From: Drouetiella hepatica Uher 2000/2452
Lineage (GTDB): Bacteria; Cyanobacteriota; Cyanobacteriia; Elainellales; Elainellaceae
Reading direction: 5' to 3'
DNA length: 64,000 nucleotides
Assembly (NCBI GenBank): GCA_019359505.1
Contig: JAHHHD010000006.1
Coordinates: forward strand, 124,001-188,000
Part shown: piece by piece, positions 58,327-63,732 of the stretch
How the letters are laid out: each line of letters starts with the position of its first letter
Position numbering within the stretch: position 1 is the first letter of the stretch
Notes under the pieces: generated by a model
What the model saw: only the letters and a program-made list of their open reading frames with translations
What the model was told of the DNA's origin: nothing
The model's database searches: none
Position numbers and translations under genes: made by a program

Positions 58327-58661
58327 AGAAGCCTCACTCATAAACTTAGTTCACAATTTAGTTCACAAAATGAAATCGAAAATGTTCTCATTTGCTGTAA
58401 TTCTAAGGGGAGAGTAGGTACAGTAACTCTGCTCGCCCAGAATGATTTAGCATTTCAATGTTGTCCTTGCGACCTGTTGTAGTGCCATGGTTTGAGCAAA
58501 TTGATTGACCTTCTCAAATTTGCGATGAGTGCTTGAAGCTCTTTGGCTGTAAACAACAGTTCGAGAGCTTTTTTGTTGCTTTATCCTTTTGTTGCTTCAT
58601 CCTTTTGCATTGGGCACTCTAGCCACTGAAAGCCCTGTGCCGAAGCGCACAACGAAAGAAT
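58327..58661. other. Spacer containing the left copy of the comM upstream region
   Basis: No gene. From 58545 on it matches the sequence before the intact comM (62109 on), with an extra internal doubling of TTTGTTGCTT / TTTGTTGCTTCATCC. Confidence 0.7.
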
Positions 58662-58740
58662 ATGCTTGCAAAAGTTTGGAGTGCCGCTCTAGTCGGAATT
58701 GATGCCATCAAAGTGGGGGTAGAGGTCGATATTGCAGGTG
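58545..58740 (+). repeat. Left copy of duplicated comM 5-prime region
   Basis: GGCTGTAAACAACA, GCTTTTTTGTTG, ATTGGGCACTCTAG, GCTGAAAGC-like text and then ATGCTTGC...AAAGTTTGGAG are shared in order with 62109-62284. The two copies differ by many substitutions, so the duplication is not recent or arose from recombination with a relative. Confidence 0.85.
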
Positions 58741-58808
58741 AACTAACGGGATTTGTCGCACAGCGACAAGAAGATTACCTGTTTTTGAGCGAAGTGTCCT
58801 TAAGATAG
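58662..58808 (+). pseudogene. Internally deleted comM 5-prime duplicate
   Basis: ATG 58662 encodes 48 residues: MLAKVWSAALVGIDAIKVGV then EVDIAGE, all as in the intact ComM, then a non-homologous LTGFVAQRQ, then EDYLFLSEVSLR and a stop. EDYLFL.EVSL matches residues about 101-112 of the intact protein. So about 221 bases of the gene are missing and replaced with 29 bases that contain the small palindrome TTGTCGC-ACA-GCGACAA. The rest of the gene is absent because the island begins here. Confidence 0.85.
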
Positions 58809-59267: not shown

Positions 59268-60245
59268 ATGACCATTTCTACAAGTGAACTTCTCGCTCTT
59301 CTGAATGAGTTTATTAGCGAGAACCAACTTAGGCTATCGCAGCATACTTTTATTGCAAGCGAAAGGCACAAAGATGTGAAGGAATGCCTGATGCATTTAG
59401 AAGGCATAGTGGGCAGAAATGAAGAAAATATTAAGAAACTGACAAATCCTCCACTTATCCCTGATAAGAGAGTATTGGGAAAAAAGCTAGCTGACAGTTT
59501 GAGCCAGTTAGAACAGTATTTGTACTCTACGTTCAAAGACGCCTGTGAGGTTGCATTCGATTATGTAGCGAAGTTCTTTAAAGATAGATCGTTTGTACTA
59601 CCAAGGGTCTGTGTAAAAGTCATTGCGGGCGACCAGCTCGTGGTTTTATTTCGCCGCCCAGAACTTCAAATTCAAAGCTTAAACATATCTACTGATGGCA
59701 ATACAGCATTTGAAAAAATTGCAGCAGGTGCAGACTACTTTATTTGTAATGATATTCCGGAAAGTGTTGAGAACGGGGGATATCAAAATGTAAGGCTTAT
59801 CAAAGAGAAGGTTCTAGAGTTTAACAAGTCAGATTTCCGAAACTCTTTCTTGTACGACGACGAAATAGATGATGCAAGTAGGGCTTGGCGTGAATGTTGG
59901 AAGGAAATAGTTGTAGTTGAGGGAAATAGTCAGAGGACGATGCAACCTCCATTAGATAGTTGCTACAAATCTATTCTTGTTATCCCTATGTCTTTGGAGA
60001 CGGGTAAGTTAGACGAGGCATTTGTATCACACTTCAACATTTCTACTGAATCAGGCAGAGCAATTTTTGGTTTCGTATCTTTTGACCATCGACATGTGGA
60101 TTTTTTTGACGAAACTCTTGATGTCGCCTTTGGATACATTTTAGCCGATATACTATCGCTTTATCTGATTCAGCAATTAACTTATACGCAGTACTCGTCA
60201 ATATATTACCAAGCAGCAACTTTACTAAGTCATCTAGGTCATTAA
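59268..60245 (+). CDS. Island gene A: unknown protein, possible GAF-like domain
   Basis: ATG 59268 (MTISTSELLALLNEFISENQL), 325 aa; the frame extends to 59169 but without a better start. Residues 1-100 are helical and charged. The C-terminal half has SILVIPMSLETGKLDEAFVS, GRAIFGFVSFDHRHVDFFDE and TLDVAFGYILADILSLYLIQQL, a pattern like the last strands and helix of GAF domains. No signal peptide or membrane helix. I do not recognise a named family. AT-richer than its neighbours, no GCGATCGC. First gene of the presumed island operon, 19 bases before gene B. Confidence 0.8.
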   Translation: MTISTSELLALLNEFISENQLRLSQHTFIASERHKDVKECLMHLEGIVGRNEENIKKLTNPPLIPDKRVLGKKLADSLSQLEQYLYSTFKDACEVAFDYVAKFFKDRSFVLPRVCVKVIAGDQLVVLFRRPELQIQSLNISTDGNTAFEKIAAGADYFICNDIPESVENGGYQNVRLIKEKVLEFNKSDFRNSFLYDDEIDDASRAWRECWKEIVVVEGNSQRTMQPPLDSCYKSILVIPMSLETGKLDEAFVSHFNISTESGRAIFGFVSFDHRHVDFFDETLDVAFGYILADILSLYLIQQLTYTQYSSIYYQAATLLSHLGH

Positions 60246-60264
60246 TCTATTCTAAGGCTCAACT

Positions 60265-60855
60265 ATGTGGGGTATTAATACCATCAGAACGCTGGCAGAC
60301 AAGGAACTGGCAAGTAAAGCTTCAGGATATCAGCAAGCTAAAGTCCCTCCACCATTGTGTAAAAGTATTACACCTGTGAGTTTTGGAATAAGCAGATTTC
60401 AAGCCAAGATAAAACTACACGATCATCAAAATCTTTCTGTCCACAAGCCTTTGCAACCTAGCTCTTCTAGTTATTACGTGCATCAGCTTGCCAACCCATC
60501 AAGAATGGAAGAATTGAACTTTATTGTAAGTTCTTTAAACAAATCGACTACACAAGCTGTGCGCGGAAGCGTTATCCATTCGTATTCCTCAGATAAGCTT
60601 CCTTATTCAAACAAAGAAGAGCAGGATTATCTTGAGAATCAATCTAAGCTTTTCAAGGAAAAGCTTCCTGAGCTGGTTAAAGACTATCCTAACAAATATG
60701 TTCTTTTTGAAAATGGCTTAGTTCTTCTTAGTCACGATGATGAAGCTACTCTAATGAAAACTGCTTATGGGACAATGGGTTTAAGACCTTTATTTGTAAG
60801 AAAAGTTCTTAAAGAAGAACCCAAATTTACCATTTGGACACCGTTAATCTGTTAA
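60265..60855 (+). CDS. Island gene B: DUF5678-like small protein
   Basis: 196 aa. Residues 1-115 are Ser/Lys/Pro-rich and probably disordered. The C-terminal part, ELVKDYPNKYVLFENGLVLLSHDD, then EATLMKTAYGTMGLRPLFVRKV, resembles the DUF5678 pattern (KYV...DG.V..S.D...ALM..A...G..PLFVRKV), from memory. Such domains are often encoded beside retropepsin-like proteases, as here (gene C follows). No enzymatic residues are evident; an inhibitor, substrate or adaptor of the protease are the options. Confidence 0.75.
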   Translation: MWGINTIRTLADKELASKASGYQQAKVPPPLCKSITPVSFGISRFQAKIKLHDHQNLSVHKPLQPSSSSYYVHQLANPSRMEELNFIVSSLNKSTTQAVRGSVIHSYSSDKLPYSNKEEQDYLENQSKLFKEKLPELVKDYPNKYVLFENGLVLLSHDDEATLMKTAYGTMGLRPLFVRKVLKEEPKFTIWTPLIC

Positions 60856-60877
60856 AGTTTGGTAGAGTTCACAGTTC

Positions 60878-61381
60878 TTGTATGTACTCAGTAGTTCGTT
60901 AAACAAATTCACAGTGAAAACTAGCACTTATTCATACAGTAGAGTGAACTCCAAGATCCCATCAGTCCCTTATGTAGCTCTTGAACTGAAAAGTATTGAA
61001 AACCCTGAGTTCAAGGTTCTGATTGATAATGCTCTATTGGATACAGGCTCGTGCATAACACTCATACCTCTAGGCTTATTAGAGGAAGTTGAAGCTAGAC
61101 CAACTGGGAGTAATGAAGTAATCAATGGGATAAGTGGTGAATTAATTGTAAGAAATTATTGGACTACCGTTGTTTTCAACGGGTGCGAGATATCACTAAC
61201 AGCAAGAGCTTGGAATGGAGAAGTCACAATTATTGGTAGAGACTTAATCAATAGATATCGTATTGATTTTAATGGACCCAACGAGAAACTTACTATTCAT
61301 ACAGGCGGAGACCAGAGCAGAAGTTGGTTGGGTAGATTTTTGAGCACCTTATTCACATTATTCAGTTACTTGACTATTTAG
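60878..61381 (+). CDS. Island gene C: retropepsin-like aspartic protease
   Basis: About 155-167 aa: TTG 60878 or, more likely, GTG 60914 (VKTSTYSYSRVNSK). Active-site motif ALLDTGSCITLIP (D-T-G), then the flap-side text EVINGISGELIVRNYW and the second family motif VTIIGRDLINRYRIDFNG. This is the single-lobe, dimerising clan AA type. The C-terminal WLGRFLSTLFTLFSYLTI is hydrophobic/amphipathic and could attach the enzyme to a membrane. Its last bases overlap gene D (convergent) by 4. Confidence 0.82.
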   Translation: MYVLSSSLNKFTVKTSTYSYSRVNSKIPSVPYVALELKSIENPEFKVLIDNALLDTGSCITLIPLGLLEEVEARPTGSNEVINGISGELIVRNYWTTVVFNGCEISLTARAWNGEVTIIGRDLINRYRIDFNGPNEKLTIHTGGDQSRSWLGRFLSTLFTLFSYLTI

Positions 61382-61794
61382 GTCGCTTTGCCTCCTATCA
61401 GTCCTAAAATAGCTCCAAATCCCATTTTCCAAGTAGTAGAACACGTTTCGAAGAGCTGTTTTTGATACTCGGACAATTCACGATTAGAAGAAAATATAGC
61501 GATTGCGGTCACAATGAGTAACGAAACTATTGTTAGGGCTAAGGCTGATAGAAAAGCCAGCTTGAATATAGGTCCAATAGACACAGAGTTACGAACTTTG
61601 ACAATTTCGTTCTGAGGTGGCAGAAGCTCTTCTTCTGGGTTTTGACTGTCTTGGCTATTCTGCTTGCCCACTTTTTTAGCTACGTAAACATTAATTTTGT
61701 TTGACGAATTAGAGCGAACAAGTAATGTTGTGTCGAAGGGTTTTTTGAAAGTTTCTCTTAGAATTTTTAAGCAATCGCTAAAAAAAGAACTCAT
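61378..61794 (-). CDS. Island gene D: two-helix membrane protein
   Basis: ATG 61794 (MSSFFSDCLKILRETFKK), with GAGG 6 bases upstream; 138 aa. A soluble N-terminal part (DTTLLVRSNSSNKINVYVAKK), a charged linker, a strong helix (IFKLAFLSALALTIVSLLIVTAIAIF), then ELSEYQKQLFETCSTTWKMGFGAILGLIGGKAT, a second Gly-rich hydrophobic end. This ending recurs in small bacterial membrane proteins that I cannot name. Convergent with and overlapping the protease gene by 4 bases. Confidence 0.75.
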   Translation of the reverse strand: MSSFFSDCLKILRETFKKPFDTTLLVRSNSSNKINVYVAKKVGKQNSQDSQNPEEELLPPQNEIVKVRNSVSIGPIFKLAFLSALALTIVSLLIVTAIAIFSSNRELSEYQKQLFETCSTTWKMGFGAILGLIGGKAT

Positions 61795-62205
61795 AAGCAC
61801 CTCTTGTGTTTCCTTGCCAATAACAGCATATTATCACTGGTATCAGCTCTCTTGTGACTTAAATAGGATTGGCAAGTTGAACCGCTCATACTAATTTTAT
61901 ATAAAACTGCATAAAATACGAGGAGCTGAAACCCTAGTCAGTTAAGGAGATTATTCTGTGCAGCCTTACAGAAAATTGGTATTAGCGTGCTCTCATCGGG
62001 ATTAGAAAGTATCGTAAGCTATCTCGTAGCCTTCCTATGTGATCGAAGCTTTCTAGCTCAGCAAGCCTCATGTTGAAATAAAATTCATGATAAGAATTGC
62101 TTCTTTCTGGCTGTAAACAACAATTTGAGGGCTTTTTTGTTGTTTCAATATCTTATATTGGGCACTCTAGACGCTGAAAGCACTGCACCATAGAGTACGA
62201 CAAAC
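61795..62205. other. Right flank of the island and comM leader
   Basis: No gene. AT-rich to about 62108, then the right copy of the duplicated comM upstream region. Confidence 0.65.
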
Positions 62206-62284
62206 ATGCTTGCCAAAGTTTGGAGCGCCGCCCTAGTTGGAATTGATGCTATCAAAGTAGGGGTAGAGGTCGATATTGCAGGTG
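62109..62284 (+). repeat. Right copy of duplicated comM 5-prime region
   Basis: Counterpart of 58545-58740: GGCTGTAAACAACA, GGGCTTTTTTGTTG, ATTGGGCACTCTAGACGCTG, then the first codons of the intact comM. The two copies flank the island as direct repeats about 3.5 kb apart. Confidence 0.85.
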
Positions 62285-63732
62285 GGTTGCCCGGAATTGT
62301 GGTAGTAGGTTTACCCGACACAGCAGTTCAAGAAAGCCGAGAGCGGGTGAAGGCAGCGCTGAAAAATGCGAGCTATGCCTTTCCGATGCGTAAGATTGTC
62401 ATTAACCTAACTCCTGCCGATCTGAGAAAGGAAGGCCCTAGCTTTGATCTGCCTATCAGCGTCGGGATTTTAGCGGCTTCTGAACAAGTGAACCCGCAGC
62501 TCTTGGAAGATTACCTGTTCTTAGGGGAAGTCTCTTTAGATGGCGGACTACGACCTGTTGCAGGAGTGGTGGCGATCGCAGCCACAGCCTATCAGCTTGG
62601 CATCAAAGGGCTGATTGTGCCGATTGACAACGCTCGCGAAGCTGCCGTAGTCGAAGGATTGGAAGTTTATGGGTTTCAGCACCTTTCAGAAGTGGCAGAT
62701 TTTCTCAATCATCCCAGCCACCATCAGCCGACACGAATCAATGGTGCGGAAGAACTGGCGCGATCGCGCTTCCAAGGGCTTGATCTCAAGGATGTTAAAG
62801 GTCAAGCTCAAGCTCGGCGTGCATTAGAAATAGCCGCTGCTGGAGGACACAACCTGATTTTTGTTGGGCCGCCTGGAAGTGGTAAAACAATGCTGGCAAG
62901 GCGGTTGCCGGGAATTTTGCCGCCGCTAACCTTCGAGGAAGCGCTGGAGGTGACACAAATTCACTCTGTCGCTGGACTGCTGAAAGATAAGGGATCTCTG
63001 GTGAGCGATCGCCCTTTTCGCAGCCCTCATCATTCAGCTTCCGGCCCGTCGTTGGTGGGGGGCGGCAGTTTTCCGCGACCGGGAGAAATTTCGCTGGCAC
63101 ATCGGGGTGTTCTATTTCTTGATGAGTTGACAGAATTTAAGCGGGACGTGCTGGAGTTTCTGCGTCAGCCGTTAGAGGACGGACATGTCACCATTTCTCG
63201 CACAAGGCAATCGGTCTCCTTCCCAGCAAAATTCACTCTGGTTGCCAGCACCAATCCCTGTCCCTGCGGCTATTTTGGCGATACAGTTCAGCCTTGCACC
63301 TGTTCGCCCCGGCATCGAGAGCAGTATTGGGCAAAACTCTCAGGCCCGTTGATGGACAGAATTGATTTGCAGGTAGCGGTAAATCGGCTGAAGCCTGAAG
63401 AGATTACGCAACAAAGCCTAGGCGAGGAATCAGAAAATATTCGACTACGGGTGCAGCAGGCAAGAGTGAGGGCGGGCGATCGCTTCCAGAACGAAACGCT
63501 GCATTGCAACGCCGAGATGCAGGGACGGCATCTGCGCCAGTGGTGTAGGTTAGAGGATGCAACCCGCATTTTGCTAGAAAACGCAATTCGCAGAATGGGG
63601 CTGTCAGCAAGAGCCACCGATCGCATTCTCAAAGTGTCACGAACGATCGCTGATTTAGAGGGCAGCGAAAACTTACAGACGGCTCATGTCGCAGAAGCCA
63701 TTCAGTATCGGACGATCGATCGAATGCAGTAA
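62206..63732 (+). CDS. comM: ComM/YifB-type AAA+ helicase (Mg-chelatase-like)
   Basis: 508 aa. N-terminal Lon-type domain (GIDAIKVGVEVDIAGGLPGIVVVGLPD, GPSFDLPISVGILAAS), Walker A VGPPGSGKTMLARRLPG, Walker B GVLFLDELTEF, Zn-like Cys in NPCPCGYFGDTVQPCTCSP, and a C-terminal Mg-chelatase-like domain (GLSARATDRILKVSRTIADL). ComM promotes branch migration during natural transformation. Full length and intact, so the upstream island restored or preserved the gene by duplicating its start. Confidence 0.95.
   Translation: MLAKVWSAALVGIDAIKVGVEVDIAGGLPGIVVVGLPDTAVQESRERVKAALKNASYAFPMRKIVINLTPADLRKEGPSFDLPISVGILAASEQVNPQLLEDYLFLGEVSLDGGLRPVAGVVAIAATAYQLGIKGLIVPIDNAREAAVVEGLEVYGFQHLSEVADFLNHPSHHQPTRINGAEELARSRFQGLDLKDVKGQAQARRALEIAAAGGHNLIFVGPPGSGKTMLARRLPGILPPLTFEEALEVTQIHSVAGLLKDKGSLVSDRPFRSPHHSASGPSLVGGGSFPRPGEISLAHRGVLFLDELTEFKRDVLEFLRQPLEDGHVTISRTRQSVSFPAKFTLVASTNPCPCGYFGDTVQPCTCSPRHREQYWAKLSGPLMDRIDLQVAVNRLKPEEITQQSLGEESENIRLRVQQARVRAGDRFQNETLHCNAEMQGRHLRQWCRLEDATRILLENAIRRMGLSARATDRILKVSRTIADLEGSENLQTAHVAEAIQYRTIDRMQ

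What the first reader, a model, noticed from the sequence alone, without database searches (positions are those of the whole stretch)
59268..61794. Uncharacterised sensor-adaptor-protease-membrane gene set
Genes A (GAF-like end), B (DUF5678-like) and C (retropepsin-like, DTG motif) form one compact same-strand unit, and a two-helix membrane protein (D) ends 4 bases inside C. A regulated protease next to a small membrane protein is a recurring logic of abortive-infection and stress systems, such as protease-activated pore formers. Here the protease is a retropepsin with a hydrophobic tail, which I do not know from any described defence system. The functional reading is inference.
Basis: inference. 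Interest (0 to 1): 0.8.

Follow-up and report, generated by a model that had tools for sequence, protein, structure and literature searches.

The report
Mobile retropepsin cassette in a cyanobacterium
A cyanobacterium carries a small foreign DNA island encoding an HIV-protease-like enzyme with its usual partner protein, an unknown protein and a membrane protein whose relatives sit beside bacterial immune genes; it may be a protease-based defence cassette, but no function has been tested.

Summary
The four genes are real. A, B and C form a tight + strand unit; D converges on it from the minus strand. C is a retropepsin relative; B carries a DUF5678-type domain. B and C are a conserved pair: the nine loci with a complete C of this type (this one included) all have B directly upstream, and in sampled cyanobacteria DUF5678 is mostly fused to a retropepsin domain (18 of 29 places). 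A-B-C recurs in order in UBA11370, again followed by a convergent small membrane protein, but one without detectable kinship to D. D's relatives are instead divergent neighbours of NACHT NTPases (6 of 7). The four genes have foreign composition and lie in one ~3.3-kb insertion between two copies of comM's 5' end, so they probably arrived together. One B-C pair lies inside a BREX operon. The GAF label for A was not supported, and C's hydrophobic tail is unique to this copy. Best reading: a mobile conflict cassette built on a regulated retropepsin; that C cleaves D is speculation. PADLOC lists a related protein as a candidate (PDC-M08B). I found no described defence system with a retropepsin in the papers searched.

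The parts
58539..58808 (+). Upstream copy of the comM promoter region and 5' codons: a remnant with an internal deletion (ORF 58662-58808), left flank of the island
   Evidence: Direct repeats D1-D4 with 62103-62538 at 74-86% identity; own-genome comM search finds it at G000:C37:182662-182760
59268..60245 (+). Gene A, 325 aa, family without a known domain; 4 members found (window, UBA11370, two Acaryochloris plasmids)
   Evidence: no Pfam, NCBIfam, PADLOC or PHROGs match
60265..60855 (+). Gene B, 196 aa: variable N-terminal part plus a C-terminal DUF5678-type domain (residues about 118-182)
   Evidence: model with pLDDT 94-97 in blocks 121-180
60914..61381 (+). Gene C, retropepsin-like protease (a TTG start at 60878 is also possible); DTG active site, IIGRD motif, hydrophobic C-terminal tail only in this copy
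61378..61794 (-). Gene D, 138 aa small membrane protein with a roughly 70-residue N-terminal extension; family normally divergent from NACHT NTPases
   Evidence: AGAGG ahead of the ATG at 61794
62103..62538 (+). Intact copy of the comM upstream region and 5' codons, right flank of the island; comM itself is 62206-63732
   Evidence: single comM copy at the corresponding place in G005, G014 and G016

Best explanation
This is a mobile conflict (probably anti-phage or anti-element) cassette built on a regulated retropepsin. B and C are the split form of a DUF5678-retropepsin protein: the DUF5678 domain of B holds or positions the C homodimer, while B's variable N-terminal part and gene A provide input. 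On a trigger C is released or activated and cuts its target. A convergently encoded, separately transcribed small membrane protein (D here, an unrelated one in UBA11370 and G050) is carried along as the likely toxic output or as a safeguard. Shown: the genes, the retropepsin relationship, the B-C pairing and fusion, the A-B-C recurrence, the foreign single insertion. Inferred: complex formation, regulation, defence function. Speculative: that D is C's substrate.
For: C profile matches solved retropepsins. B directly upstream of C in 9 of 9 loci with a complete C of this type, this one included (gaps -53 to 58 nt). DUF5678 fused in frame to a full retropepsin domain in 18 of 29 places from 26 of 194 genomes, and in a neighbouring gene in 2 more. 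A-B-C in the same order in UBA11370, A 49% identical. Convergent small membrane gene after C in 3 of the 9 loci (window, UBA11370, G050). Foreign GC3 of all four genes, flanking comM repeats and empty sites. B-C between brxC and pglX in Elainella saxicola. D relatives divergent from NACHT NTPases in 6 of 7. A relatives on two conjugative plasmids. PADLOC candidate PDC-M08B matches C at E 4e-5.
Against: Only one of the other eight complete B-C loci sits inside a recognised defence operon; several have ordinary neighbours such as polA (G216) or a dihydroorotase-like ORF (L058). I have no background rate for defence genes near random loci. D has no relative at any other B-C locus, and the convergent proteins of UBA11370 and G050 show no detectable kinship to it (hhalign probability 1.3). 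A is absent from 7 of the 9 complete loci by the local search or inspection. Fused DUF5678-retropepsins are spread through cyanobacteria without an evident defence context. B occurs alone in G025 and twice in G028. No match in viral contigs.
Confidence: 0.45

Rival explanations
1. B-C is a regulated protease of ordinary cell physiology (stress or turnover), and the island merely carries it. DUF5678 is a substrate-binding or structural domain, as in the fused one-gene form; D and A are unrelated cargo.
For: The fused form is widespread (18 of 29 DUF5678 places) with varied, mostly non-defence neighbours. Several B-C loci have housekeeping neighbours. Bacterial retropepsins with physiological roles are in print (search listing: PMC12239564, PMC11957791).
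Against: Foreign composition and insertion of the cassette, patchy presence (strong C matches in 2 of 36 genomes of the order, and 3 of 386 of the phylum), a B-C pair nested in a BREX operon, and co-travel with a NACHT-linked membrane family.
Confidence: 0.27
2. B-C is a toxin-antitoxin-like addiction pair: C a protease toxin, B its antitoxin and autorepressor, kept because loss is harmful.
For: Two small tightly linked genes with B first; variable N-terminal part of B, which in Oscillatoria princeps L054 resembles UPF0175 (E 2.8e-4, 21.0 bits, below the cut-off 27.9) and in L057 weakly so (E 0.038); UPF0175 as an antitoxin family is recalled, not from a call. Location on an island.
Against: In the commonest form DUF5678 and protease are one protein, which is odd for a labile antitoxin. 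The UPF0175 resemblance is below the cut-off and in 2 of 8 aligned B proteins at most. No toxicity data.
Confidence: 0.15
3. Chance assemblage: the island is a patch of decaying mobile cargo whose four genes have no common function.
For: Window B and C sit on long branches; C may need a TTG or GTG start without an obvious ribosome site; D's usual NACHT partner is missing here.
Against: All four ORFs are intact, C keeps DTG and the IIGRD motif, and A-B-C is syntenic in UBA11370.
Confidence: 0.13

Closest known systems
PADLOC candidate PDC-M08 (component B), PDLC04405 and PDLC04402
   Same: C matches the B component (E 4e-5), as do the C genes of L023, L030, L058 and L059 more weakly
   Different: Only 45 residues of a 127-position model are covered in the window protein; no model named PDC-M08A matched any protein scanned; it is itself an untested candidate
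Clan AA aspartic protease, AF_0612-type (TIGR03698, clan_AA_DTGF)
   Same: Same fold class; weak matches of C relatives (E 9.5e-5 to 0.0053)
   Different: All far below the curated cut-off (best 22.7 vs 57.35 bits); window C not matched
Retroviral retropepsins (HTLV-1, FIV, HIV proteases)
   Same: DTG active site and C-terminal hydrophobic-hydrophobic-Gly motif; profile E 2.9e-7 to HTLV-1 protease
   Different: Bacterial operon with a DUF5678 partner; not part of a polyprotein
Bacterial retropepsins in print (Rickettsia APRc, Pseudomonas secreted retropepsin-like enzymes, Pseudomonas RimABK-linked protease); seen only in the search listing
   Same: Retropepsin-like aspartic proteases of bacteria
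   Different: No DUF5678 partner or mobile island reported in what I saw; relationship by sequence not tested here
Bacterial NACHT/NLR-related defence systems
   Same: D's family is the divergent neighbour of NACHT NTPases in 6 of 7 relatives
   Different: No NACHT gene next to D in this window
BREX type I operon
   Same: In Elainella saxicola the B-C pair lies between brxC and pglX on the same strand
   Different: No BREX gene near the window's island; no aspartic protease, retropepsin or DUF5678 is mentioned in the BREX survey PMC12839542 (term search of its main text)

Membership tests
Retropepsin-like aspartic proteases (clan AA) | D-T/S-G active-site motif | tested here: met
   DTG in window C and in all 8 distinct relatives aligned
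Retropepsin-like aspartic proteases (clan AA) | Profile similarity to solved retropepsins | tested here: met
   24 distinct PDB sequences at E 0.01 or better, the listed names being retroviral proteases
Retropepsin-like aspartic proteases (clan AA) | Pfam RVP or Asp_protease cut-off | tested here: inconclusive
   Window C below (12.5 vs 20.7 and 14.6 vs 24.3 bits); Elainella C above for RVP, Asp_protease_2 and gag-asp_proteas
Retropepsin-like aspartic proteases (clan AA) | Homodimer with proteolytic activity | not testable with these tools
   needs biochemistry
DUF5678 (PF18929) | Score over the Pfam gathering threshold | tested here: inconclusive
   Window B 13.1 of 23.2 bits; relatives L054 26.3 and L061 24.8 pass; others 13.2-22.9 or unmatched
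GAF domain (gene A) | Profile similarity to GAF domains | tested here: inconclusive
   No Pfam family for A or 3 relatives that suggests GAF; hhalign to a 7-row GAF alignment 0.3% probability, controls 0.0-0.7; the small test set limits its power; structure model too poor (pLDDT 40)
PADLOC PDC-M08 | Component B over most of its length | tested here: not met
   Window C covers model positions 19-65 of 127
PADLOC PDC-M08 | Component A present | tested here: inconclusive
   No hit named PDC-M08A; I could not see what that model is
NACHT-based defence system (gene D) | NACHT NTPase gene next to the small membrane gene | tested here: not met
   Next gene beyond D is comM at 62206
Type II toxin-antitoxin system | Two small adjacent genes, antitoxin first | tested here: met
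   B-C order and gaps
Type II toxin-antitoxin system | Toxicity of C neutralised by B | not testable with these tools
   needs experiment
Anti-phage defence system | Protection against phage | not testable with these tools
   needs experiment

The most novel reading that the evidence does not exclude
A retropepsin-based bacterial immune cassette: A senses an invader, B couples the signal to the retropepsin C, and C cleaves the N-terminal extension of D, unleashing a small membrane effector that elsewhere serves NACHT (NLR-like) immune proteins. It would be a bacterial counterpart of protease-activated pore formation run by an HIV-protease-type enzyme, with interchangeable membrane effectors (D here, another in UBA11370 and G050).
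Probability: 0.15. Interest if true: 0.85.

Novelty: new variant of a known kind. Interest (0 to 1): 0.55.

Why it matters
If true, retropepsins, best known from retroviruses, would join the proteases used in bacterial immunity, and DUF5678, for which one search of the paper library found a single unrelated paper, would gain a function as their dedicated partner. The fusion and pairing data make that partnership directly testable. The NACHT-linked membrane family (D) is a second concrete lead for how cyanobacterial NLR-like proteins act.

Tried and rejected
Considered and rejected: (1) A-B-C-D as one operon: D is on the other strand. (2) D as C's conserved partner: its relatives pair with NACHT genes. 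(3) D and the UBA11370/G050 protein as one family: hhalign probability 1.3. (4) A as a GAF protein: not supported. (5) C's hydrophobic tail as a family trait: absent from 8 relatives; its length roughly equals the 68-nt spacer between C and the convergent gene in UBA11370, so it may be an extension of C through such a spacer (inference). (6) A conjugative context for UBA11370: only a sub-threshold DUF87 match, so not claimed. (7) A terminator hairpin at the C-D junction: fold not better than shuffles, z 0.57.

Led nowhere: scan of genome contigs with C alone; viral contigs with C, B and A alignments; plasmids with C, with the UBA11370 B and its convergent gene; PHROGs; PDB sequence searches for A, B and D; structure of A; fold search of B's confident domain, best Foldseek E 0.68 and best Z 2.8; phylum searches for A (only weak fragments in 2 of 339 genomes besides its own; none besides its own of 254) and for the UBA11370 membrane protein (1 of 156, G050). 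Trees of B and C were too weak to place the window copy firmly. Of the 14 weaker C matches, 7 proved to be fused DUF5678-retropepsins and 7 had no DUF5678 nearby.

Full report
What is there. The window holds A (59268-60245 +), B (60265-60855 +), C (60878 or 60914-61381 +) and D (61378-61794 -), all intact. A-B and B-C gaps are 19 and 22-58 nt; D converges on C and the two ORF ends overlap by 4 bases. The window is part of a 6.4-Mb genome in 87 contigs; psbA and comM neighbours and the kinship of its searched relatives make it a cyanobacterium of the family that holds Elainella saxicola (G010 contig C11 and the named Elainella contig both have 11,820 bases, and L056 lies wholly inside L023).

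C is a retropepsin relative. Alone it matches Pfam and PDB weakly (Asp_protease_2 E 0.055; the single PDB sequence below E 0.1 is a protease, 3kt2, E 2.7e-5). A profile of C and three relatives finds HTLV-1 protease at E 2.9e-7 and other retroviral proteases. The Elainella relative passes three Pfam aspartic-protease cut-offs. DTG is present in window C and all 8 distinct relatives aligned. The hydrophobic tail is only in the window copy.

B and C belong together. Searches made with C alone or with C alignments led to nine loci with a complete C of this type, counting the window: window, Elainella (G010), G216, G050, Oscillatoria princeps L054, Chamaesiphon L058, bin31 L059, bin59 L060 and UBA11370 L061. 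All nine have B directly upstream (gaps -53 to 58 nt). Three more C matches are incomplete: L057 has B and a truncated C, L055 is cut by the contig end, L062 is a fragment without B. Fourteen weaker C matches split into 7 with DUF5678 fused in the same frame and 7 without any DUF5678 in the DNA held. From the other side, a search for DUF5678 in 194 cyanobacterial-phylum genomes found 29 places in 26 genomes: 18 are fused in frame to a full retropepsin domain, 2 have it in the neighbouring gene, 2 keep a remnant and 7 have none (the profiles used there were built partly from 9 of these same loci). Solo B genes occur in G025 and twice in G028. The fused proteins shown carry DSG rather than DTG; one, in L073, has NSG.

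B's shape. An AlphaFold2 model of B with 7 relatives is confident only for the DUF5678 part (10-residue blocks from 121 to 180 at pLDDT 94-97), with the order helix, strand, strand, helix, strand; no clear match in the PDB. The N-terminal part of B varies: about 110 residues here, about 320 in G050, a sub-threshold UPF0175 match in L054 and a weaker one in L057.

A. A has no known domain. Relatives: UBA11370 (49% identity, directly upstream of B-C) and two Acaryochloris marina conjugative plasmids (26.6-28.0% over 94-95% of the protein), where no aspartic protease is annotated among the neighbours shown; one lies directly upstream of a Roc-COR LRR protein. The GAF suggestion was tested with a small seven-row GAF alignment and gave 0.3% probability, within the range of controls (0.0-0.7).

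D. D's homologous part is its C-terminal membrane portion; the window copy has an extra N-terminal stretch of about 70 residues. A search of 36 relatives found D relatives at 6 places outside the window. Five lie head to head with a NACHT NTPase gene (gaps 18-172 nt; NACHT and NCH2 domains confirmed by Pfam); in the sixth, L022, I recognised none by eye in 18 kb. A seventh relative, on an Allocoleopsis franciscana plasmid at the record start, was then checked across the origin and has a NACHT gene head to head, followed by a type I restriction subunit. So 6 of 7. In the window D has no NACHT neighbour.

Recurrent layout. UBA11370 has A-B-C followed by a convergent 99-aa protein with three hydrophobic segments; G050 has B-C followed by a convergent 103-aa relative of it (58% identity). 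Spacers are 68 and 163 nt. This family shows no detectable kinship with D. Thus 3 of 9 complete loci have a convergent small membrane gene; a fourth, L054, has a convergent kinase gene matching PADLOC's PD-T4-6; the remaining five have neither.

The island. The comM upstream region and first codons occur twice, at 58539-58802 and 62103-62538 (74-86% identity by segment), on either side of A-D. In the same-genus genome G005 and in G014 and G016 the HIT-like gene is followed by a single comM copy; in G006, also same genus, the sequence upstream of comM is different, so it is uninformative. The four genes have GC3 0.31-0.36 against 0.552 (sd 0.044, minimum 0.487) for 32 window ORFs. I infer one acquisition of about 3.3 kb; the mechanism of the duplication was not resolved.

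Defence context. In Elainella B-C lies between brxC and pglX, on the same strand as brxA and brxB, all confirmed by PADLOC. L060 has an NB-ARC/TPR protein downstream and L058 an AAA/TPR protein upstream. G216 has polA and other ordinary genes. There is no background rate for such neighbours, so this is suggestive only. C matches PADLOC candidate PDC-M08B (E 4e-5 over 45 residues).

Literature. DUF5678 occurs in one paper of the library, unrelated. No paper holds 'aspartic protease', 'antiphage' and 'cyanobacteria' together. Term searches inside the BREX survey PMC12839542 and the conflict-system papers PMC7159879 and PMC8195603 found no aspartyl, aspartic or retropepsin term; I saw only passages. 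'PDC-M08' itself occurs in none of the 4 papers listed. Other papers were seen only in search listings. Subscription papers and preprints are not in the library.

Mechanism. Shown by sequence: pairing and fusion of DUF5678 and retropepsin, recurrence of A-B-C, joint presence in a foreign insertion. Likely: B docks on C and controls it. Inferred: A or B's N-terminal part senses a trigger. Unproven: that C cuts D, and that the outcome is defence. Confidence in the conflict-cassette reading 0.45; in the B-C functional pair alone about 0.9.

Noticed in passing
L017-L021, L131, L132: A family of small membrane proteins (relatives of D) is encoded head to head with NACHT NTPase genes in 6 of 7 cases; no description found in the one search made.
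   Followed up: partly
L065-L089 (18 of the 29 DUF5678 places): Widespread cyanobacterial fusion of DUF5678 with a retropepsin-like domain, about 205 aa, with DSG active sites in those shown.
   Followed up: partly
L073:1483-2055: A fused DUF5678-retropepsin with NSG in place of DSG at the active site, possibly catalytically dead.
   Followed up: no
L092:1060-2112: DUF5678 match inside a protein that begins like a response regulator, with no retropepsin found.
   Followed up: no
window 58539-58808 and 62103-62538: Duplicated comM 5' region flanking a foreign insertion; comM is known (recalled) as an insertion hotspot in Acinetobacter, here in a cyanobacterium.
   Followed up: partly
L053:6905-10595: On an Acaryochloris conjugative plasmid an A relative lies directly upstream of a Roc-COR LRR protein gene, with a NACHT gene a few kilobases away.
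   Followed up: partly
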